Positions 3,132 through 18,973 of a stretch of 20,111 nt of DNA are shown here, in pieces. The stretch is from the IMG/VR virus record IMGVR_UViG_3300042387_001871, positions 1 to 20,111 of that record. One strand, written 5' to 3'. The DNA is from a virus. Every line of letters starts with the position of its first letter. Positions within the stretch are counted from its first letter, which is position 1. The position numbers and the translations under genes were made by a program. The notes beneath the pieces are model-generated. The model was given only the letters and a program-made list of their open reading frames with translations. It was not told where the DNA came from and made no database searches.

Positions 3132-3842
3132 TTGACCAAACGCTCAAAAAAACATAAAGCAACCACAGATAACACACAACAGGCTTCTCATGAGATTTAT
3201 AAAAATAGACTGAGAGCTAGGTCAGAAAATCAAAAACTTTACATAGAAACCATTAAAAATAATGTTGTAACATTTTGTCAAGGATTAGCTGGTAGTGGTA
3301 AAACACATATTGCTGTTGGCATGGCAATAGAAGCCTTGTTAGGAGAGCAAGTAGATAAAATTATTATTACCAGACCAGTATTAGAAGCAGGAGAAAGAAT
3401 AGGATATCTTCCAGGAACGGCAGAAGAAAAACTACATCCTTATCTTTTACCAATTGTTGATGAAATACTATACTTTATAAGTATGGGGCATTACACGGCA
3501 TTAAAATTGAATAATAAAATCGAGGTAGTTCCGCTAGGTCTTATGCGTGGTCGTAATTTTCATAATGCATTTATTGTAGCCGACGAATGTCAAAACGCAT
3601 CTTATGATCAATTAAAAATGTTATTAACAAGAGTAGGGAGAAATAGTAAAATAGTATTGACTGGTGACGTCAAACAGTCTGATCTAAATAAACACCTACA
3701 AGGAGGTTTTGCTAAAATTAGTCAGGCGCTAAGTTCTGTAGATGGAATAGGCTCATCAATTTTAGAAGCAATAGATATTGTACGCAACCCTATTATTGCT
3801 AAAATTTTAAATGTTTTGGATGAGTTGCCGGAGGAAAAGTGA
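3132..3842 (+). CDS. phoH: PhoH-like P-loop ATPase
   Basis: A 236-residue PhoH-family protein. Walker A is GLAGSGKT (51-58), Walker B is AFIVADE (146-152), and a sensor-like LTGD is at 176-179. RPVLEAGERIGYLPG (81-95) and the ECQNAS stretch after Walker B are characteristic of PhoH. These proteins are ATPases linked to RNA metabolism and are very common in phages; the exact phage role is not established. No N-terminal PIN domain is present, so this is the short PhoH form. The basic N-terminal tail (TKRSKKHK) may bind nucleic acid. The TTG start is supported by AAAAGGAG six bases upstream. Its stop overlaps the GTG start of the methyltransferase (GTGA), implying translational coupling. The family call is secure; the function in this phage is inferred only. 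Confidence 0.93.
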   Translation: MTKRSKKHKATTDNTQQASHEIYKNRLRARSENQKLYIETIKNNVVTFCQGLAGSGKTHIAVGMAIEALLGEQVDKIIITRPVLEAGERIGYLPGTAEEKLHPYLLPIVDEILYFISMGHYTALKLNNKIEVVPLGLMRGRNFHNAFIVADECQNASYDQLKMLLTRVGRNSKIVLTGDVKQSDLNKHLQGGFAKISQALSSVDGIGSSILEAIDIVRNPIIAKILNVLDELPEEK

Positions 3843-4747
3843 AGTCCGATCCTTTACAGAGTCATATTAAAAATAATGTTGATATCTTCAATATAAAATT
3901 ATTGAATAGCACATTTATATCACAGAAAATCTTGCCTATAAATTATAATAATTCTCCATATATCTTATCAGATACAAATCATAATGACGTCATGTATTAT
4001 GATGGCATGCTTTATCCAGACGAAATACTCAGAGAAAATTATGGTTCTACGATAGAAGACTATGCTGTTTCCGGAAATTTAGCAGCACAGTCTATAGCCG
4101 GACTTTTGTCTCAATATAAAAATTTAGATAAACATACCTCTATCTTAGACTGGGGGTGTGCGGCGGGCAGAGTGATCAGATGGTTACCAAAATATGTAAG
4201 TAGCAATTTATATGGATGCGATATTAATTGTAATTATATTTATTGGTGTCAAAAGTATTTAAATAATATCGGCATATTTACACAGTGTTCGTCATTTCCT
4301 CATTTACCATTTAGGGACAACACTTTTGATATAATTTATGGATTATCCGTATTTACTCACATTAATCAACTAATTGATATGTGGTTATTAGAACTTAAAC
4401 GCATACTAAAACCGGGAGGTATGTTATTAATAACATTACATGACAATAGTGCATATCAAATTATAAAAAACAATCTAAACAATAAAAAACATACATCATC
4501 AGGAGCTGCTTTTGTTATTAAACGATCTTTTCAACAATTCCCAGATATTTCCACCTTTGATAGGATGTCATGCGGAAATGGTGATCCAAGAGGCAATTTT
4601 ATGTTTTTTAGCGATGAAAATATTAGACGTACATTTGGTAAAATTTTTACCATAAAAGAAAAATTAACTATACTAGATAATAGTAAATATGATTTAGCAT
4701 TGAACATAGGAAACTTTCAAACAACATATGTTCTCGGTAATGAATAA
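3839..4747 (+). CDS. Class I SAM-dependent methyltransferase
   Basis: A 302-residue protein with a Rossmann-type methyltransferase core. Motif I is ILDWGCAAGR (102-111), YGCDIN (125-130) ends strand 2, FDIIYGLSVFTHI (163-175) is the motif IV region, and LKPGGML (190-196) is typical of the Methyltransf_11/25 type. There is no DPPY/NPPY motif as in adenine DNA methylases and no PCQ motif as in cytosine-5 methylases. A small-molecule, lipid or sugar substrate is therefore more likely than DNA. The roughly 95-residue N-terminal extension is not recognised. The GTG start overlaps the phoH stop by four bases and GGAGG at 3830-3834 precedes it. Sugar-related genes occur at the right end of the window (DUF3431 and a glycosyltransferase), so glycan modification is one guess. 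The substrate is unknown. Confidence 0.82.
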   Translation: MKSDPLQSHIKNNVDIFNIKLLNSTFISQKILPINYNNSPYILSDTNHNDVMYYDGMLYPDEILRENYGSTIEDYAVSGNLAAQSIAGLLSQYKNLDKHTSILDWGCAAGRVIRWLPKYVSSNLYGCDINCNYIYWCQKYLNNIGIFTQCSSFPHLPFRDNTFDIIYGLSVFTHINQLIDMWLLELKRILKPGGMLLITLHDNSAYQIIKNNLNNKKHTSSGAAFVIKRSFQQFPDISTFDRMSCGNGDPRGNFMFFSDENIRRTFGKIFTIKEKLTILDNSKYDLALNIGNFQTTYVLGNE

Positions 4748-11792: not shown

Positions 11793-12403
11793 CTAAAATT
11801 ATTGCATTTGCCGGTAGAAAACAATCTGGTAAAAGTACGGCGTGTGAGTATATATCCAATATTATATCCACTAGACCATACAACACATTTACTAATAAAA
11901 TTTATAGTTTTGCTGATCCACTAAAGCAAGATATTTGTATAAACATACTTGGGCTATCCCATGATCAATGCTATGGTTCGGATGATGATAAGAACAGCCT
12001 AACTCACTTAACATGGAACGATAAACAATTAACAGCCAGAGATGTTATGCAAATAGTTGGAACAGAAATGTTTAGAACCATGTATCCTAATGTTTGGGTT
12101 AATGCATTAATTAATAAGATTAAAAATGATAATATAGAAGTAGCATTAATCTCCGACTGTAGATTTCCAAATGAAGTTGACATAGTTCATAAAAATCATG
12201 GATATGTTATACGATTAACTCGTAATCTTTTTAATGTTGATCATCCTAGCGAAAAAGCATTAGACAAAGAATATTATGATTGGTCTAACTTCGATTGGGT
12301 GATTGATAATCAAAATCTTAATATTGATGATAAAAACAAAGCAATTAGCGACTATTTGTACTACAGTAGAGCCCTATATTACAGCAATACAAAAAATATA
12401 TGA
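11789..12403 (+). CDS. Deoxynucleoside monophosphate kinase
   Basis: Phosphorylates dNMPs to dNDPs, the step after dCMP deaminase. The 204-residue product begins with MTKIIAFAGRKQSGKST, where GRKQSGKS (9-16) is the P-loop; this is the phage dNMP kinase pattern (T4 gp1-like family). FADPLKQDI, LTARDVMQIVGTEMFR and VALISDCRFPNEVD match conserved blocks of that family. It starts by a four-base ATGA overlap with the primase and ends the same way into the nuclease gene, so expression is coupled. Phage enzymes of this kind often accept several dNMPs, including modified ones; substrate range here cannot be read from sequence. Confidence 0.9.
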   Translation: MTKIIAFAGRKQSGKSTACEYISNIISTRPYNTFTNKIYSFADPLKQDICINILGLSHDQCYGSDDDKNSLTHLTWNDKQLTARDVMQIVGTEMFRTMYPNVWVNALINKIKNDNIEVALISDCRFPNEVDIVHKNHGYVIRLTRNLFNVDHPSEKALDKEYYDWSNFDWVIDNQNLNIDDKNKAISDYLYYSRALYYSNTKNI

Positions 12404-13461
12404 TTATTACCTATTTACGCAGTAGTTCTTATGGCACACACTCCATGTGTGAGCAACAGTATTTTATAGAATATGTATTGGGCTTAAAGTCCCCATCTAA
12501 TAAAAAGGCAGACAAGGGAACCATAGTACATAAAGTGCTAGAAATTCTAGCACTAATGAAACACGCTGAGCAGAATAAACAGCAATATGTTGAAGACGAT
12601 GTTGTAGGCCAAATTGATATAGTAAAACATAGTATGCATGACGGAGTATTCGTGCATAGCGTAGTAGATAAGGTATACCAATATTATACTTCTCAATTTA
12701 CACACCATGAATGGACAGAAACCGATAAAAAGGACTGTATTAATTGGATCAATAAGGCTCTAACTCATAATAATAGAATGTTTGATCCTAGACATAGAAT
12801 CATAGTACAACCAGAGCAAAAATTTGATATAACAATTAATAAAGATTGGGCTAAGTATACTTTTGATACTAAAGAAGGACAACTAACCGGAAATTTAGCC
12901 ATTAAAGGTACGATAGATTTAATCACAGAAGTAAATCAAGACACATTAGAAGTAATAGATTGGAAAACAGGAAAAAGGCTGGATTGGGCCACAGGCGAAA
13001 TTAAGACGCCAGAAAAACTACAAAAAGACGCTCAATTAAGAATGTATCATTATGCTATTAGCATATTATATCCACAATATAATCACGTTATGGTTTCTAT
13101 TAACTTTATTAATGATGGTGGACCGTTCTCTATTTGTTTTGATAAGTCAGACTTATACGAAACAGAAAATATGCTTAGAAGAAAGTTTGAAACTATAAAA
13201 AACGCTACAATACCACGCCTAAATAAAAGTTGGAAATGCAATAAGTTATGCCACTTTGGTAAAACATCTTTTGAACAAGGACATATTGAGCCGATTAAAG
13301 AGTATAGAGAAAATCAAGTTACTAATATTAACTATAATATGTGCAAGTGCGAACAAATAAAACATGACACAGACCTATATGGTATAGACCACGTAGTTGA
13401 CAAGTATACTAAGCCGGGTTATAATGTGGCTTCTTACAAAGCACCAGGGTCAGTAGAATAA
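12400..13461 (+). CDS. Cas4/RecB-like PD-(D/E)XK exonuclease
   Basis: A 353-residue nuclease of the PDDEXK_1 group. The motifs appear in order: H44 in GTIVHKVLE, D173 in GTIDLI, D187-W-K189 in EVIDWKTG, and Q212xxxY216 in AQLRMYHYA. Cysteines C17, C280, C284, and C315 or C317 are placed as in Cas4, AddB and Dna2, with one near the N-terminus and a group after the nuclease core. An iron-sulfur cluster is therefore plausible, though the spacing is unusual. Such phage nucleases are thought to resect DNA ends for recombination. There is no CRISPR array or cas1/cas2 nearby, so a CRISPR role is not indicated. The 3' end contains a consensus promoter for the polymerase gene, and the stop forms TAATG with it. 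Confidence 0.85.
   Translation: MIITYLRSSSYGTHSMCEQQYFIEYVLGLKSPSNKKADKGTIVHKVLEILALMKHAEQNKQQYVEDDVVGQIDIVKHSMHDGVFVHSVVDKVYQYYTSQFTHHEWTETDKKDCINWINKALTHNNRMFDPRHRIIVQPEQKFDITINKDWAKYTFDTKEGQLTGNLAIKGTIDLITEVNQDTLEVIDWKTGKRLDWATGEIKTPEKLQKDAQLRMYHYAISILYPQYNHVMVSINFINDGGPFSICFDKSDLYETENMLRRKFETIKNATIPRLNKSWKCNKLCHFGKTSFEQGHIEPIKEYRENQVTNINYNMCKCEQIKHDTDLYGIDHVVDKYTKPGYNVASYKAPGSVE
13397..13425 (+). promoter_or_regulatory. Consensus promoter inside the nuclease gene, ahead of dnaE-N
   Basis: TTGACA at 13397-13402, a 17-base spacer, and TATAAT at 13420-13425; both hexamers and the spacing are ideal. Transcription would begin near 13432, leaving a leader of about 28 bases before the polymerase ATG at 13461. 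The elements are embedded in codons for VDKYTKPGYNVAS. A chance match is possible but two perfect hexamers at perfect spacing directly upstream of a major gene make function likely. Confidence 0.65.
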
Positions 13462-15299
13462 TGTACATACCTTTGCATAATCATACTCACTATAGTCTAT
13501 TGGATGGCCTTTCTCGACCAGAACAGATCGCTGACAAGTGCGCCAAATTTGAGATGAAATCTTGTGCTATTACCGATCATGGTAATATCTGTGGAGCTAT
13601 CCAATTTTATCAAAAGCTTAAGAAAAAAAAGATTAAGCCCATCTTGGGTATAGAATTATATATTTGTGATCAAGATAGTTCTATTCAAGAAAAAGACAAT
13701 GCTAATTTATCTCACATGTTACTATTAGCAAAAAATCTAAAAGGATGGAAAAACCTAATTAAGCTGGTATCTCAATCAAATCATCCGTCTAGATTTTATC
13801 ATAAACCAAGAGTATCTTTAAAAGATTTAGAAGACTATCAGTCTGATGATTTTATTTGTATGACGGGTCATCTTGGTTCAGTTATTGCTAATCATATTTT
13901 AAATGATAATGTCTTATCTCCAGATGCTAGTGCTATATTCGATCAAAAGCTTTCTTATTTATATGATATTTTTGGTACACAAAACGTCTTTATTGAATGT
14001 CAGCAAATGGATCGAGATTACACCAAAGAACAATCAATATTAACCAACTTTTACAGAGAAAAAGCAGCATCTAACAATAGTATTAAATTAATCGCGACCT
14101 GTGATGCTCACTATGTAAATCAGGAAGACTCTGTAGACCAAAGAATATTATTGTGTAATAATTTAAAAACAACATTTGCAGAAATATCTAAAAAAGACAA
14201 TATACCACTTAAAACCTTTTTTGAGTCTGATAAATATTATCTATTAACACCAAATGAAATGCAACAGCTTCATACTGAAACCGAAATAAAAAATACACTG
14301 TTAGTAGATAGTATGTGTGAGGAGTATGAGATACTAGTGCCACCACAATTACCAAAATTTACTTGCCCAAATGGTTTAATAGAAAAGGATTACTTGTATA
14401 AGCTATGTAGTGACAAGCTATCAAATATAGACAAATCTAATCCTAATGCGTATAAAGATAGGTTAAATAGCGAGCTTAATACTATTAATAAGGCTGGTTT
14501 GTCTGGATATTTCTTGATAGTAAAAGATATTGTGGACTTTATTAGATCTAATGATTGGCTTCCTGGTCCTGGGCGAGGGTCGGCGGCTGGGTCTTTGGTG
14601 TCATATCTTTTAGGTATAACATCTATAGATCCTATAAAATACGATCTACTCTTTGAGAGATTCTATAATGACGGACGTAATACCGAAGGTCGTATTTCTA
14701 TGCCTGATATCGACGTTGACGTACCCATTGACAAAAGAGAATTAGTTATTCAACATATGAAAGATAAGTATGGCAGCAGCAAGGTAAGTCAAATGATTAC
14801 CTTTAATACCCTAAAGGGCCGGGGAGCCTTAAAAGAAGTGCTCAGGGTCTATGGAGACATATCTTTTGAAGAGACTAATAGAATTACGGAAAATATTCCA
14901 GACGAAGCCAAAATTGCGGATGAATTACAAGAAATGAAAGAAGAATATGGTGAGGCTTCCATCATTAGATGGGCTCTTGAAAATGAGGGAGAGAAGCTAA
15001 AACAGTGGTGTTCAATCGACTCAGATGGCAACCTTTCTGGACCTCTATCGAAGAGATTTGAGCAGGCTATAAGACTGGAAGGAACAAAGTGTCATCAGTC
15101 TAAACACGCGGCTGGAGTGGCTGTGTCTGCTCAAAACTTAGATGAGATTTGTCCAATGATATATGACGGCAAAACAGAACAAACTATAGCGGGGCTAGAA
15201 ATGGCCGATTTGGAATCGTTGGGAGTTGTAAAGTTTGATATTCTTGGTGTAGCACTATTGGACAAAATTATGAACATACGAGACATGTTGCGGGGTTGA
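13461..15299 (+). CDS. dnaE: DNA polymerase III alpha subunit (DnaE type), N-terminal fragment: PHP and catalytic palm
   Basis: The front half of a C-family replicative polymerase, 612 residues. The PHP domain (1 to about 290) keeps apparent metal ligands: H6 and H8 (LHNHTHYS), D39-H40 (TDHGN), E65, H85, C133 and D215/H217 (TCDAHY). The same sites are degenerate in E. coli DnaE, so PHP may be an active nuclease here. In the palm, GPGRGSAAGSLVSYLLG (369-385) precedes the catalytic D416 and D418 in PDIDVD; the third catalytic aspartate is D593 in KFDILG. The gene ends normally soon after that (DMLRG, TGA). The rest of the enzyme is encoded at 16309. No intein sequence is present at the end. It starts in TAATG after the nuclease gene and has its own upstream promoter. 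Polymerase activity would require the second fragment. Confidence 0.93.
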   Translation: MYIPLHNHTHYSLLDGLSRPEQIADKCAKFEMKSCAITDHGNICGAIQFYQKLKKKKIKPILGIELYICDQDSSIQEKDNANLSHMLLLAKNLKGWKNLIKLVSQSNHPSRFYHKPRVSLKDLEDYQSDDFICMTGHLGSVIANHILNDNVLSPDASAIFDQKLSYLYDIFGTQNVFIECQQMDRDYTKEQSILTNFYREKAASNNSIKLIATCDAHYVNQEDSVDQRILLCNNLKTTFAEISKKDNIPLKTFFESDKYYLLTPNEMQQLHTETEIKNTLLVDSMCEEYEILVPPQLPKFTCPNGLIEKDYLYKLCSDKLSNIDKSNPNAYKDRLNSELNTINKAGLSGYFLIVKDIVDFIRSNDWLPGPGRGSAAGSLVSYLLGITSIDPIKYDLLFERFYNDGRNTEGRISMPDIDVDVPIDKRELVIQHMKDKYGSSKVSQMITFNTLKGRGALKEVLRVYGDISFEETNRITENIPDEAKIADELQEMKEEYGEASIIRWALENEGEKLKQWCSIDSDGNLSGPLSKRFEQAIRLEGTKCHQSKHAAGVAVSAQNLDEICPMIYDGKTEQTIAGLEMADLESLGVVKFDILGVALLDKIMNIRDMLRG

Positions 15300-15313
15300 C
15301 ACCTCAACGGTGT
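15295..15313 (+). repeat. Two overlapping inverted repeats at the -35 region
   Basis: GTTGA (15295-15299) pairs with TCAAC (15304-15308) around CACC, and ACACC (15299-15303) pairs with GGTGT (15309-15313) around TCAAC. The two five-base stems share sequence, so they exclude each other. They cover the -35 box of the internal promoter and the dnaE-N stop codon, a sensible place for an operator. The stems are short and chance is not excluded. Confidence 0.35.
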
Positions 15314-15324
15314 ATTATTATTAT
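15296..15324 (+). promoter_or_regulatory. Promoter between the two polymerase halves
   Basis: TTGACA at 15296-15301 overlaps the dnaE-N stop (TGA 15297-15299). A 17-base spacer leads to TATTAT at 15319-15324. The predicted start near 15331 is upstream of the AAAGGAG ribosome binding site and ATG 15358. It would give the small protein, the exonuclease and the C-terminal polymerase fragment a transcript independent of dnaE-N. Confidence 0.72.
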
Positions 15325-15345
15325 AAAACAGAGTCTTTTACGCAC

Positions 15346-15352
15346 AAAGGAG
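15346..15352 (+). promoter_or_regulatory. Shine-Dalgarno site fixing the start of the 78-aa gene
   Basis: AAAGGAG lies five bases before ATG 15358. It excludes the in-frame GTG at 15310, which would also lie upstream of the predicted transcript start. This is among the strongest ribosome binding sites in the window. Confidence 0.8.
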
Positions 15353-15357
15353 CAGTT

Positions 15358-15594
15358 ATGAAATTTTTTGAATTGGCAGTGGGCGATAAATTTAGATACG
15401 AAGGATTACTATATGTAAAAGCTAAAGAAGAAAGAATTTCTTGCTGTAAAGTAGGAAAAAATGCAACTTTATGGGGGGCAGATGATTCGAAAGTGGTAAT
15501 CAAGCCATTAGCAGATGTAGAAAAAGTAGATAATTCCACACATCAGCCCATAGAACCCCCAACAGGACACATAGCTCCAGCTAAATCAGAATAA
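15358..15594 (+). CDS. Small unknown protein, 78 aa, first gene of the internal polymerase operon
   Basis: The product begins MKFFELAVGDKFRYEGLLYV and is likely a small beta-rich domain over the first 55 residues. It has CC at 29-30 and a Pro-rich tail (IEPPTGHIAPAKSE). The opening 'F-x-x-L-x-x-G-D-x-F' style is common in short phage and bacterial proteins of unknown function, and I cannot assign a role. A strong promoter (15296-15324) and the strong AAAGGAG site suggest abundant expression. It precedes the DnaQ-like exonuclease by eight bases. Its place between the polymerase halves makes a polymerase-associated role worth testing, but the protein may equally be an unrelated cargo gene. Confidence 0.75.
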   Translation: MKFFELAVGDKFRYEGLLYVKAKEERISCCKVGKNATLWGADDSKVVIKPLADVEKVDNSTHQPIEPPTGHIAPAKSE

Positions 15595-15602
15595 AACTCT
15601 TT

Positions 15603-16322
15603 ATGCTTATTAATCAAAAAAAGATTTGCGTCTTCGATATGGAGACGGACGGATCAGATCCGTACACATGTAGTCCGGTACAAATAGCCGCACTCATGAT
15701 AGACCCTATAAAATTAGAAGTGGTCAAGGATTCTGAGTTTAACATAAATCTTAAACCAGACAAACTTGAAACAGCTGACCAAGATCATAACCCATACTTG
15801 GATAGCGATATATTGCAATGGCATGCAAAAATTAAAGGAGTAACTCCAGAAAAAATATTGGAAGACTGGAAATCTTATCCCAGTCAAAGTAAATCTTGGG
15901 AGCAATTTATTAATTATTTAGATTCGTTTCATACAAGAACAACGAAAAAAAGTCTATTTACAGCTCCTATTGCAGCTGGTTACAATATTTTTAGATTTGA
16001 TTTGAAAATTGTAGAAAGATTGGGAGAAAAATACGGAAACGTAAATAGCAATGGAGAAATAGATATTTTTTATCCTCGCGATACTTTAGATCTAATGAAT
16101 CTATTATTTTATTGGTTTGAAAGTAGTCGTGATGTAAAAAGCTTATCAATGGACACCATGAGAGGATATTTTGGCATTAGCAATATGAATGCGCACGACG
16201 CATTAAAAGACGTTCAAGATACAGCGGAAATATTAATTAGATTTTTAAGACTACACAGAAATCTATCTAAAAAAATCAAATTTAAGGATTCCTTTTCAAT
16301 AGCATCTAATGGACAAATTTAA
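15603..16322 (+). CDS. DnaQ-like DEDDh 3'-5' exonuclease (proofreading type)
   Basis: A 239-residue exonuclease resembling the epsilon proofreading subunit of DNA polymerase III. The four catalytic acids and histidine are visible: D12 and E14 in VFDMETDG (ExoI), D133 in AGYNIFRFDLKI (ExoII), and H198 with D203 in NAHDALKDVQDTA (ExoIII, DEDDh form). The middle of the protein (40-115) is longer than in minimal epsilon and includes QWHAKIKGVTPE, seen in many phage DnaQ-like proteins. No clear clamp-binding motif is seen. It lies between the two polymerase fragments and its end overlaps the start of the C-terminal fragment by 14 bases, so the two are probably made together. Proofreading for the split polymerase is the natural inference; a repair exonuclease is the alternative. 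Confidence 0.88.
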   Translation: MLINQKKICVFDMETDGSDPYTCSPVQIAALMIDPIKLEVVKDSEFNINLKPDKLETADQDHNPYLDSDILQWHAKIKGVTPEKILEDWKSYPSQSKSWEQFINYLDSFHTRTTKKSLFTAPIAAGYNIFRFDLKIVERLGEKYGNVNSNGEIDIFYPRDTLDLMNLLFYWFESSRDVKSLSMDTMRGYFGISNMNAHDALKDVQDTAEILIRFLRLHRNLSKKIKFKDSFSIASNGQI

Positions 16323-17943
16323 ATATAATTGCGGCTGTTCTTTTGATATTCTTGACAAACAAGAAAATATTCCCAAAATTTTATTTGATATCAATATTGA
16401 GAACATTAATCTTGATTGCTCTAGAACATGGGATTTATTATCAGACGGAAATACTAAGGGGTGCTTTCAGCTAGAGTCTAGACTGGGGCAAACATTAGCT
16501 AAAAAACTAAAACCAGAAAACATAGAACAGCTTGCGGCATTGATAAGTATTATGAGGCCGGGATGTTTGGAAGCTATACGCAATAATAAAAGCGTTACTA
16601 ATCATTATATAGACAAAAAGAATGGTGACGAGTCTATAGATTACTTTCATCCGTGTTTAGAGCCTATTCTTGATAAGACGTACGGAGAGATGATTTATCA
16701 AGAACAAGCGATGCAAATAGCCCAAAAGGTTTCTGGTTTTGATCTAAAAGAAGCAGATATGTTAAGAAAAGCCATTGGCAAAAAAAAACCAGAAGAAATG
16801 GCTAGACTGAAAGTAAGATTTTTGGATGGAGCTAAAAAGCTAGGCATTATAGACGATGCTTCTGCGGAGGAGCTTTTTGGATGGATCGAAAAATCTCAAA
16901 GATATTCTTTTAATAAAAGTCATGCCGTAAGCTATGCTTTCAATGCATATCTTTCCGCATATGCTAAAGCCCATTTCCCAAAAATCTTTTTTGCCTCATA
17001 TCTAAAATATGCTAAAGATAAAATAGATCCACAAAAAGAAATCAAAGAATTGGTTGCAAATGCATTAGAATCCGATATTAATATTAGAGTACCGGATTTA
17101 AGACTAATGAATAGATCTTTTATAATACATAAGCGAGATGTATATTTTGGCTTAACAGATATCAAGGGTTTTGGGGACTCTGTGTACGAAAAACTATGTG
17201 GTTTAACAGAACACTTGGACCTATATAAGTTAAATTTTCTTGAAATTATTTTTCATATACTACTATCTATTAACAGCTCAGCAGCAAAAGCCCTAATAGA
17301 AGGAGGAGCACTCGGTTTTATAGGTTTATCTAGAAAGTATATGTTGCACAGCTATAATATATGCAGCAAGCTTTCTGATAGAGAGATTAAGTGGGCCAAA
17401 GCCAACTTAGACCTGTCAAAATTTAATAACATTTCGGGGTTTTGGGACTTTGTATTCTCTATGAGTTCTGGTAAGAACAGTTTTTTTGCAACATCAAAAA
17501 GAATGCAATCATTAACAGAGGAGTACGCTTTGTTTAAAAATCCTCCATTTTCTCTAGAAGATTCTGTGGAATGGTTAGCCGATGCTGAACATAGACTATT
17601 GGGTATTTCTATTACTTGTTCTAGGGTTGATGGGTGCGATACTTTAAGTGCTAATACTACATGTAAAGAAATTAAAACAACACTAAACAAAAAAGTATTA
17701 GTGGCGTGTGAGATAGATGATATTAATGTTGTAAAAACAAAAAAGGGTAAAAACCCTGGACAAGAAATGTGTTTTATTAAAATATCGGACGCCACAGGCT
17801 ACGCAGACAATATTGTATGCTTTCCTGAACAATACAAAGAATTCGAAAGCCTGCTAATAACAGGTAATACTATCCTAATTGAAGGAGACAAGCCAAAAAG
17901 CACAGAAGGAGGATTGCTAGTCAAAAAAATCTGGCAAATATAA
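16309..17943 (+). CDS. dnaE: DNA polymerase III alpha subunit (DnaE type), C-terminal fragment: fingers, HhH and OB fold
   Basis: The rear half of the polymerase, 544 residues. Residues 36-57 (DCSRTWDLLSDG...GCFQLES) resume the DnaE sequence, followed by IMRPG (81-85), TYGEMIYQEQAMQIAQ (124-139), MLRKAIGKKKPEEMA (151-165) and SFNKSHAVSYAF (200-211). An HhH-like GFG lies near 287-289, and an OB fold spans about 461-544. The first 35 residues, including NCGC at 7-10, are extra relative to the usual link in DnaE and may form a docking segment. ATG 16309 is inside the exonuclease gene; the next methionine (M82) would remove conserved sequence. With the N-terminal fragment the total is 1,156 residues, a normal DnaE size, so nothing essential appears lost. 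No ribosome binding site is seen; coupling is likely. Confidence 0.92.
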   Translation: MDKFKYNCGCSFDILDKQENIPKILFDINIENINLDCSRTWDLLSDGNTKGCFQLESRLGQTLAKKLKPENIEQLAALISIMRPGCLEAIRNNKSVTNHYIDKKNGDESIDYFHPCLEPILDKTYGEMIYQEQAMQIAQKVSGFDLKEADMLRKAIGKKKPEEMARLKVRFLDGAKKLGIIDDASAEELFGWIEKSQRYSFNKSHAVSYAFNAYLSAYAKAHFPKIFFASYLKYAKDKIDPQKEIKELVANALESDINIRVPDLRLMNRSFIIHKRDVYFGLTDIKGFGDSVYEKLCGLTEHLDLYKLNFLEIIFHILLSINSSAAKALIEGGALGFIGLSRKYMLHSYNICSKLSDREIKWAKANLDLSKFNNISGFWDFVFSMSSGKNSFFATSKRMQSLTEEYALFKNPPFSLEDSVEWLADAEHRLLGISITCSRVDGCDTLSANTTCKEIKTTLNKKVLVACEIDDINVVKTKKGKNPGQEMCFIKISDATGYADNIVCFPEQYKEFESLLITGNTILIEGDKPKSTEGGLLVKKIWQI

Positions 17944-17947
17944 TATT

Positions 17948-18973
17948 ATGAACTCGGAATTAGTAGTATCTGTTTATAATGAAGATCCCTCATGGATTCT
18001 TGAAGCCTTAAAAACAAAAAAGATAGGCAAGGTTTTTGTATACAACAAAGGATATAAGGACTTGTCATTAGATGACCCTAGAGTTGAGATAATAGAAAAA
18101 CAAAATATAGGTAGAGAAGGCGAAACATTTTTATATCATATAATTAAAAACTGGCACAACCTATCCGATAATATATGGTTTTGTCAGGGAGATCCGTTTG
18201 AGCACTCACCAGATTTTATTGGTTTAATTAAGAACTTGGATGAATATAAAGCTTATCCGTATTGGCCTATGAGCTATAAATATAAAGAAGATATCCCACC
18301 ACAGCAACTATTAGATATCAACAATAAAGACCATATAAATGGCTTAAGGTGTGCTAATTATTTTATTCAAAATATGCAGATTGTTGGACACTGTGGGTTT
18401 GTGGATATTCCTTTATATGGATCCATATCAGAATGTAGGCAAAAATATAAAACATATGATCTTTTTAGATATTTATCAAACAGGCTGGGATTAGCAACGC
18501 CTGGGCCAATAACAGACTTTGCATATTCTGCATGTTTATTTACAAAAGGCTCCAGTATTAGACGGCACGAAACCTGGGTATATGAAGAACTATACACATT
18601 TCTACTAGAAAGTCATGAGCAAGGTGGTTGTCAGGGATACATATTAGAGAGATTTTGGCCATATTTATTAACTGGAAGAAGCTATCAAAGTCTGACAGAT
18701 TGTTATAAAACTCTTATTACACCCTCTCCGAGCGTGGGTGTGTGGAGTGCGTCTAAAAAATTGTTATATACGAAAAAAAAATTGGGATGGCATGAAATTT
18801 TACCGTGTAATGATTCTACCATTTGTGTTTATGACAAAAAAACAAATTCAGTAAAATTTTTGCCAAATATTGTATTATATGATAGATCAAATACTCATAG
18901 CGTTAAATGTGAATCATTAGATCAGGCACAAGACATTATATTGAACTCTATATACGACCAACCCATACCGTAG
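17948..18973 (+). CDS. DUF3431-family protein (possible glycosyltransferase-like)
   Basis: A 341-residue protein matching the DUF3431 pattern as I know it: VVSVYNED (6-13), VFVYNKG (29-35), NIGREGETFLYHII (53-66) and FCQGDPFEH (78-86). The family resembles glycosyltransferase A-fold proteins and often occurs near sugar-transfer genes, but its biochemical function is not established. The C-terminal 100 residues carry a separate block (KKLLYTKKKLGWHEILPCND) not obviously part of DUF3431. It begins five bases after the polymerase gene stop. A glycosyltransferase starts at 19546 beyond SSB, and a methyltransferase lies at 3839, so virion or DNA glycosylation is possible. The family call is moderate; the substrate is unknown. 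Confidence 0.72.
   Translation: MNSELVVSVYNEDPSWILEALKTKKIGKVFVYNKGYKDLSLDDPRVEIIEKQNIGREGETFLYHIIKNWHNLSDNIWFCQGDPFEHSPDFIGLIKNLDEYKAYPYWPMSYKYKEDIPPQQLLDINNKDHINGLRCANYFIQNMQIVGHCGFVDIPLYGSISECRQKYKTYDLFRYLSNRLGLATPGPITDFAYSACLFTKGSSIRRHETWVYEELYTFLLESHEQGGCQGYILERFWPYLLTGRSYQSLTDCYKTLITPSPSVGVWSASKKLLYTKKKLGWHEILPCNDSTICVYDKKTNSVKFLPNIVLYDRSNTHSVKCESLDQAQDIILNSIYDQPIP

What the first reader, a model, noticed from the sequence alone, without database searches (positions are those of the whole stretch)
13461..17943. DnaE polymerase split into two genes with a proofreading exonuclease gene between the halves
Seen: a DnaE-type polymerase is broken just after the third catalytic aspartate (D593 of the first fragment). 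A 78-aa gene and a DEDDh exonuclease gene lie in the gap. The two fragments add to about normal DnaE length and no conserved block looks lost. Known: the cyanobacterial split DnaE breaks further downstream, just before the FNKSH motif, and is rejoined by a split intein. Here FNKSH is at residue 201 of the second fragment and no intein sequence is found, so this is a different break without protein splicing. Inference: the fragments may assemble non-covalently with the exonuclease as a three-part core polymerase.
Basis: partly seen in the sequence, partly recalled or inferred. Interest (0 to 1): 0.78.

Follow-up and report, generated by a model that had tools for sequence, protein, structure and literature searches.

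The report
Phage replication polymerase in two pieces
A large, widespread group of uncultured phages makes its only detectable DNA-copying enzyme as two separate proteins, with a proofreading-type nuclease gene always between the two halves, and two unrelated cultured phage groups have cut the same enzyme at the same place, so the two halves very probably join without being chemically stitched together.

Summary
A family C (DnaE-type) polymerase is encoded as F1 (13461-15299: PHP and palm/thumb, all three catalytic Asp) and F2 (16309-17943: fingers, HhH, OB). A 78-aa gene and a DEDDh exonuclease lie between, and the exonuclease gene overlaps F2 by 14 nt. The break falls in the palm-fingers linker. 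It is not an artefact: all 183 related loci holding both halves (111 distinct F2 sequences) have a stop after F1 and the exonuclease before F2. Both halves are under strong purifying selection (median dN/dS 0.04 and 0.03), and all catalytic residues are invariant. Twenty-two relatives of 112-238 kb carry one palm, one fingers and no detectable PolA or PolB. No intein or known RNA family was found at the break. I found the same break independently in cultured mycobacteriophages Cuke and Fowlmouth, whose relative Indlulamithi is intact, and in Rossellomorea phage phiT1. So the halves most likely assemble non-covalently into the phage's sole replicase, as T4-like gp43A/B do. The exonuclease as a physical third subunit is plausible but untested. 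In relatives, F1 also carries split inteins and a strange hairpin/stop insert at its N-terminus, a candidate ribosome-bypass element.

The parts
13461..15299 (+). F1: N-terminal half of the DnaE-type polymerase (PHP domain, palm, thumb; ends 19 residues after third catalytic Asp D593)
   Evidence: Pfam PF02811 and PF07733; PHROG 405; maps to Thermus alpha 6-635; AlphaFold model mean pLDDT 77.6 matches DnaE structures, Foldseek E 1e-42; D416, D418, D593 and PHP ligands invariant
15358..15594 (+). small gene, 78 aa, conserved motif around RISCC; function unknown
   Evidence: no Pfam or PHROG match; homologue detected by tblastn in 126 of the 183 loci that hold both halves, listed
15603..16322 (+). 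DEDDh 3'-5' exonuclease, 239 aa, predicted proofreading exonuclease
   Evidence: RNase_T PF00929; PHROG 192 'DNA polymerase exonuclease subunit' E 8e-19; D12, E14, D133, H198, D203 invariant in 28 relatives
16309..17943 (+). F2: C-terminal half (N-terminal Cys-containing hairpin, fingers, HhH, OB domain), 544 aa
   Evidence: Pfam PF17657 and PF14579; maps to E. coli alpha 584-1055; AlphaFold model mean pLDDT 84.3 matches DnaE structures, Foldseek E 2e-22
16309..16322 (+). 14-nt overlap of exonuclease stop and F2 start, consistent with translational coupling
   Evidence: in most relatives the exo-F2 spacing is -1 to -8 nt
16309..16419 (+). F2 N-terminal extension with invariant C8, C10, C37 (KYNCGCSF ... 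LDC), absent from the intact phage DnaE aligned and from the other two split lineages
   Evidence: alignments; predicted beta-hairpin, pLDDT 80-90
12400..13461 (+). PD-(D/E)XK nuclease gene directly upstream, overlapping the F1 start
   Evidence: PF12705
6864..11792 (+). RecA-like recombinase, DnaB helicase and Toprim primase: phage replication region
   Evidence: PF00154, PF03796, PF13662
19068..19448 (+). single-strand DNA-binding protein
   Evidence: PF00436

Best explanation
The phage makes its replicative family C polymerase as two polypeptides from one operon. F1 brings the PHP domain, the palm with all three catalytic aspartates and the thumb. F2 brings the fingers and the DNA-binding HhH and OB domains. 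They fold around one another across the normal palm-fingers interface and form one active site without protein splicing. The DEDDh exonuclease made from the gene between them proofreads for this polymerase. It is probably produced in step with F2 through the overlapping start and stop codons and may bind the complex. Shown: the split, its conservation, selection on both halves, intact active sites, no second polymerase detected, and repeated origin of the same break. Inferred: non-covalent assembly, polymerase activity, and exonuclease partnership.
For: Break between Pfam palm and fingers families with the rest of the core retained. 183/183 loci split with the exonuclease between and a stop after F1. 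Median dN/dS F1 0.042, F2 0.034. Catalytic and PHP residues invariant. One palm, one fingers, no PolA, no PolB in 22 records of 112-238 kb. The same linker is broken in cultured mycobacteriophages Cuke and Fowlmouth (MrMiyagi also annotated as two genes), whose relative Indlulamithi has one gene, and in Rossellomorea phage phiT1; all breaks fall in one linker. Split T4-like gp43A/gp43B co-purify and polymerise (review PMC2988022).
Against: No direct evidence of association or activity. F1 predicted alone has low confidence at 447-550, which could mean it needs F2 or only reflects a shallow alignment. All family members are metagenomic fragments, so a second polymerase in unsampled genome parts cannot be excluded. 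The exonuclease has a higher median dN/dS (0.20). The two other split lineages have no exonuclease between the halves.
Confidence: 0.8

Rival explanations
1. Two-part polymerase as above, but the exonuclease is an independent enzyme (for example in recombination or nucleotide turnover) that simply landed between the halves and is kept there by operon structure.
For: The other two split lineages lack an exonuclease between the halves. The PHP domain keeps a full set of metal ligands and could proofread itself. Some loci carry inserts between F1 and the exonuclease or between the exonuclease and F2.
Against: The exonuclease is present in 183/183 loci; it matches PHROG 192 'DNA polymerase exonuclease subunit'; its stop overlaps or abuts the F2 start; Pseudomonas phage DL68 has an exonuclease gene abutting its polymerase gene.
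Confidence: 0.25
2. The two halves are joined covalently after all, by protein trans-splicing or RNA trans-splicing.
For: Split inteins do occur in F1 of relatives L009 and L020/L023 at another site; cyanobacterial DnaE is joined by a split intein.
Against: No intein-like sequence at the end of F1 or the start of F2 in 27 and 35 aligned relatives; no Rfam match in the window; the intervening kilobase is filled by conserved genes.
Confidence: 0.03
3. The polymerase is decaying and the phage uses the host replicase.
For: Gene fission often marks pseudogenes; the tau-binding domain is missing.
Against: Low dN/dS in both halves, invariant active sites, conserved in more than a hundred distinct sequences, and sits in an otherwise well-stocked replication region.
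Confidence: 0.03
4. F1 and F2 are separate proteins with separate jobs, such as a PHP nuclease and a DNA-binding protein, and no longer make a polymerase.
For: PHP ligands are fully retained in F1.
Against: Palm and fingers residues, which matter only together, are invariant in both halves; no other polymerase detected in long relatives; cultured phages with the same split are viable.
Confidence: 0.05

Closest known systems
Split gp43A/gp43B DNA polymerase of T4-like Aeromonas phages 25 and 44RR (review PMC2988022)
   Same: A phage replicative polymerase encoded by two genes that assemble without splicing; reported to co-purify and polymerise
   Different: Family B enzyme with a different fold and break; separated by a homing endonuclease gene or untranslated spacer, not by a proofreading exonuclease
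Split minimal DNA polymerase III alpha of group 2.2 jumbo phages (Iyer et al. 2021, PMC7824862)
   Same: Phage family C catalytic module in two proteins, proposed to reconstitute an enzyme
   Different: There the genes are far apart, PHP and the other domains are missing and a family B polymerase accompanies it; here the genes share one operon, PHP to OB is retained, and no PolB was found in 22 long relatives
Cyanobacterial split DnaE with split intein
   Same: DnaE encoded in two pieces
   Different: Break lies about 200 residues further on (just before FNKSH) and is healed by protein trans-splicing; neither holds here
DnaE genes of mycobacteriophages Cuke, Fowlmouth, MrMiyagi and of Rossellomorea phage phiT1
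   Same: Same palm-fingers linker broken; two neighbouring genes
   Different: No exonuclease between; Cuke and Fowlmouth genes overlap by 4 nt, phiT1 has a 49-aa gene between; sequence only about 30% alike; no Cys hairpin at the start of F2
Exonuclease plus intact family C polymerase of Pseudomonas phage DL68 (Pbunavirus)
   Same: 3'-5' exonuclease gene abuts the family C polymerase gene
   Different: Polymerase is one gene and the exonuclease lies upstream of it
Fractured genes with split inteins (Dassa et al. 2009, not readable here)
   Same: Phage-type replication gene split with another gene in the gap; found in F1 of L009 and L020/L023
   Different: Not the arrangement at the F1/F2 break, which has no intein

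Membership tests
Family C DNA polymerase (DnaE type) | PHP domain plus Pol-beta-like palm with three catalytic Asp | tested here: met
   PF02811, PF07733; D416, D418, D593 invariant
Family C DNA polymerase (DnaE type) | Fingers and HhH/OB C-terminal domains | tested here: met
   PF17657, PF14579, match to E. coli alpha 584-1055, fold match
Family C DNA polymerase (DnaE type) | C-terminal tau-binding domain | tested here: not met
   Match ends in the OB domain; not a core catalytic feature
Family C DNA polymerase (DnaE type) | Polymerase activity | not testable with these tools
   needs protein
Cyanobacterial split-intein DnaE | Break just before FNKSH | tested here: not met
   FNKSH at F2 201-205
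Cyanobacterial split-intein DnaE | Intein halves at the two new ends | tested here: not met
   Alignments of the ends in relatives
Minimal split Pol III alpha of jumbo phages | No PHP or other domains, distant genes, accompanied by PolB | tested here: not met
   PHP and OB present, one operon, no PolB in 22 records
T4-like split gp43 | Family B polymerase | tested here: not met
   Family C; works alike only by analogy
DEDDh proofreading exonuclease | Motifs DxE, D, HxxxxD | tested here: met
   D12, E14, D133, H198, D203 invariant
DEDDh proofreading exonuclease | Binds the polymerase alpha subunit | not testable with these tools
   no complex prediction available

The most novel reading that the evidence does not exclude
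An obligate three-part core replicase: F1, F2 and the DEDDh exonuclease form one stable complex in which the exonuclease, together with the Cys hairpin added at the start of F2, helps hold the two polymerase halves together, replacing the covalent palm-fingers link.
Probability: 0.25. Interest if true: 0.78.

Novelty: new variant of a known kind. Interest (0 to 1): 0.64.

Why it matters
It shows that a bacterial-type replicase can be encoded in two pieces across its palm-fingers interface and stay conserved in a large phage group. The same cut arose at least three times, twice in cultured phages, so the modularity of family C polymerases and their proofreading can be tested with natural parts.

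Tried and rejected
Rfam and tRNA scans of the window found nothing, so no intron was detected. A search for close intact relatives with a spacing pattern gave five hits; four lie in contigs already known to be split and the fifth, L182, proved split. One codon choice only was used, so an intact cousin could be missed. The single genome-contig scan gave three MAG contigs holding family members and one distant DnaE; host assignment from MAG names is not safe. Gp23 capsid search rang nowhere, controls included, and says nothing. Bacterial beta clamp was not found in 22 records; a T4-type clamp was not searched. Records MT836213 and Pseudomonas phage Y1 looked like near relatives but encode intact bacterial-looking DnaE. 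I first suspected stop-codon recoding in nine loci because tblastn ran through a stop in F1; it proved to be a single short insert at one site. Literature searches found no description of this arrangement in the open-access library.

Full report
What is there. The window is a 20,111-base fragment of a virus record. It carries a phage replication region: B12-type ribonucleotide reductase, PhoH, RecA-like protein, DnaB helicase, Toprim primase, dNMP kinase, a PD-(D/E)XK nuclease and SSB. Within it a DnaE-type polymerase is encoded in two genes. F1 (13461-15299, 612 aa) holds the PHP domain and the palm family PF07733, which ends at residue 596. F2 (16309-17943, 544 aa) holds the fingers family PF17657 from residue 27, then an HhH domain and an OB domain (OB by match to E. 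coli alpha). Between them lie a 78-aa gene (15358-15594) and a 239-aa DEDDh exonuclease (15603-16322) whose last 14 bases overlap F2.

Is the break real and conserved? Yes. Related loci were fetched from IMG/VR with F2 and with the exonuclease. Of 188 loci, 183 hold both halves. In every one there is a stop after F1 and the exonuclease lies before F2; the F2 sequences fall into 111 distinct variants. The F1-to-F2 match spacing is usually about 0.9 kb. In eight loci it is longer; where I looked, other genes have slipped in. No fusion of exonuclease and F2 was seen. An assembly artefact is excluded.

Are both halves alive? Median pairwise dN/dS is 0.042 for F1 and 0.034 for F2, on 20 pairs each, and 0.20 for the exonuclease on 29 pairs. 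The palm aspartates D416, D418 and D593 are invariant in 106 distinct F1 sequences. So are the PHP ligands D15, H40, E65, H85, H137, D215 and H217; H6 and H8 are invariant in the 27 aligned uninterrupted genes. H137 stands where Thermus alpha has Cys. The exonuclease keeps D12, E14, D133, H198 and D203.

What is lost or gained at the break? F1 covers Thermus alpha 6-635 and F2 covers 641 onward. No core residues are missing; the tau-binding C-terminal domain is. F2 has gained about 25 residues at its start, a predicted hairpin with invariant C8 and C10, followed by an invariant C37. This extension is absent from the intact phage DnaE aligned. It could bind metal or a partner; that is a guess. 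AlphaFold models of each half match DnaE structures. F1 alone is poorly predicted at 447-550.

Is there another polymerase? In 22 relatives of 112-238 kb there is exactly one palm, one fingers, no PolA and no PolB. These are fragments, so absence is not proof. No bacterial-type sliding clamp was found either.

The same break elsewhere. Rossellomorea phage phiT1 encodes DnaE as gp20 (573 aa) and gp18 (469 aa) with a 49-aa gene between. Mycobacteriophages Cuke and Fowlmouth encode it as two genes overlapping by 4 nt, and MrMiyagi is annotated as two genes as well. The relative Indlulamithi has one gene of 1,059 aa at about 59% identity in the C-terminal half. In an alignment all breaks fall in the linker between the helix after the third catalytic Asp and the start of the fingers. 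Other phages checked are intact by annotation or translation: Sundance, GBK1, DL68, FEC19, ChickenPhender, Yikes, Thoth, VRE9_3, DAC16, PcaP2EGY, PIS 136 and MTATph1. So the cut most likely arose at least three times, which marks this linker as a place where family C polymerases tolerate being cut. For Cuke the 4-nt overlap leaves room for coupled re-initiation or rare frameshifting; for the window a frameshift cannot join the halves.

How it most likely works. Inference from anatomy: F1 and F2 form the usual palm-fingers interface non-covalently. The exonuclease-F2 overlap suggests translational coupling and therefore matched amounts. T4-like gp43A/gp43B and the split NrdA of phage Aeh1 are tested precedents for such reassembly (PMC2988022). 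The proofreading role of the exonuclease is likely from its family and position. Physical membership in the complex is not shown, since the other split lineages have none between the halves and DL68 has the exonuclease next to an intact polymerase.

What is known. A minimal split Pol III alpha has been described in group 2.2 jumbo phages, in distant genes and beside a PolB (PMC7824862). The present arrangement differs in domains, gene order and lack of PolB. A survey of polymerase swapping in Caudoviricetes does not mention split PolC in the passages searched. I rate this a new variant of a known kind.

A second oddity in relatives. In 37 fetched loci (23 distinct upstream sequences) the F1 reading frame is interrupted near its start. 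A strict pattern found the element in 34 contigs across IMG/VR, all at F1. In most, after ATG GAC GTG (or close variants), nine bases, TAT GTN CCN YTN CAC GTC CAT TCN comes TAA or TAG. Then 7 to 12 bases in all (stop included) precede the HYSLLDG or MYSLLDG codons, in any reading frame. The region folds strongly: mean z about -4.3 against mononucleotide shuffles, versus +0.5 for uninterrupted starts. Two competing hairpins are seen, one with the stop codon in an internal loop. On an F1 tree the trait needs at least 12 changes (the test of single origin did not finish), and in L084 an HNH-like endonuclease gene lies just upstream. The remaining PHP ligands stay invariant in these genes, which suggests that the HxH part is still supplied. 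T4 gene 60, with its 50-nt bypass and linked homing endonuclease, is the obvious comparison (PMC5009743). Re-initiation is a rival, but at least five variants (L007, L060, L066, L074, L084) lack an in-frame ATG or GTG between the stop and LLDG. The window itself has an uninterrupted start.

Noticed in passing
L007 about 4220-4310, L028 about 3400-3490, L063 about 4205-4290, L084 about 2475-2560, L209-L242; 37 fetched loci before the pattern scan: F1 N-terminus interrupted by a conserved 14-codon leader, a stop codon and a 7-12 nt gap of any frame within strong competing hairpins, patchy on the tree: candidate ribosome-bypass (stop-hop) element.
   Followed up: partly
L009 3041-6117; L020 3068-6128 (L023 near identical): A split intein inserted in F1 at PGPGRG|SAAG, with a free-standing gene that looks like a nuclease between the intein halves, so DnaE is in three pieces there.
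   Followed up: partly
L060 3128-6121: A different insert of about 1.1 kb in F1 near residue 410, with frame-disrupted sequence.
   Followed up: no
L084 1761-2504: HNH-like endonuclease ORF directly upstream of the interrupted F1 start; similar upstream sequence in L020 and L023.
   Followed up: partly
L085, L094, L097, L084, between F1 and the exonuclease: A large (over 800 aa) ORF starting with RCC1-like repeats inserted between F1 and the exonuclease.
   Followed up: no
L071 3362-7000; L016 5979-7000: Extra genes between exonuclease and F2; L071 has a pilin-like protein resembling planctomycete DUF1559 proteins (recalled, not tested), a possible host hint.
   Followed up: no
L045 6323-6992; L043 3205-4933: Exonuclease (L045) and F1 (L043) reading frames are broken, either sequencing error or decay.
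   Followed up: no
L191 (MT836213.1) and L192 (Pseudomonas phage Y1, OQ572403.1): Records labelled phage carry full-length bacterial-looking DnaE among apparent chromosomal genes; they may be bacterial sequence.
   Followed up: partly
window 17948-18973 and 3839-4747: DUF3431 protein just after F2 and a methyltransferase after PhoH, both within the replication region.
   Followed up: no
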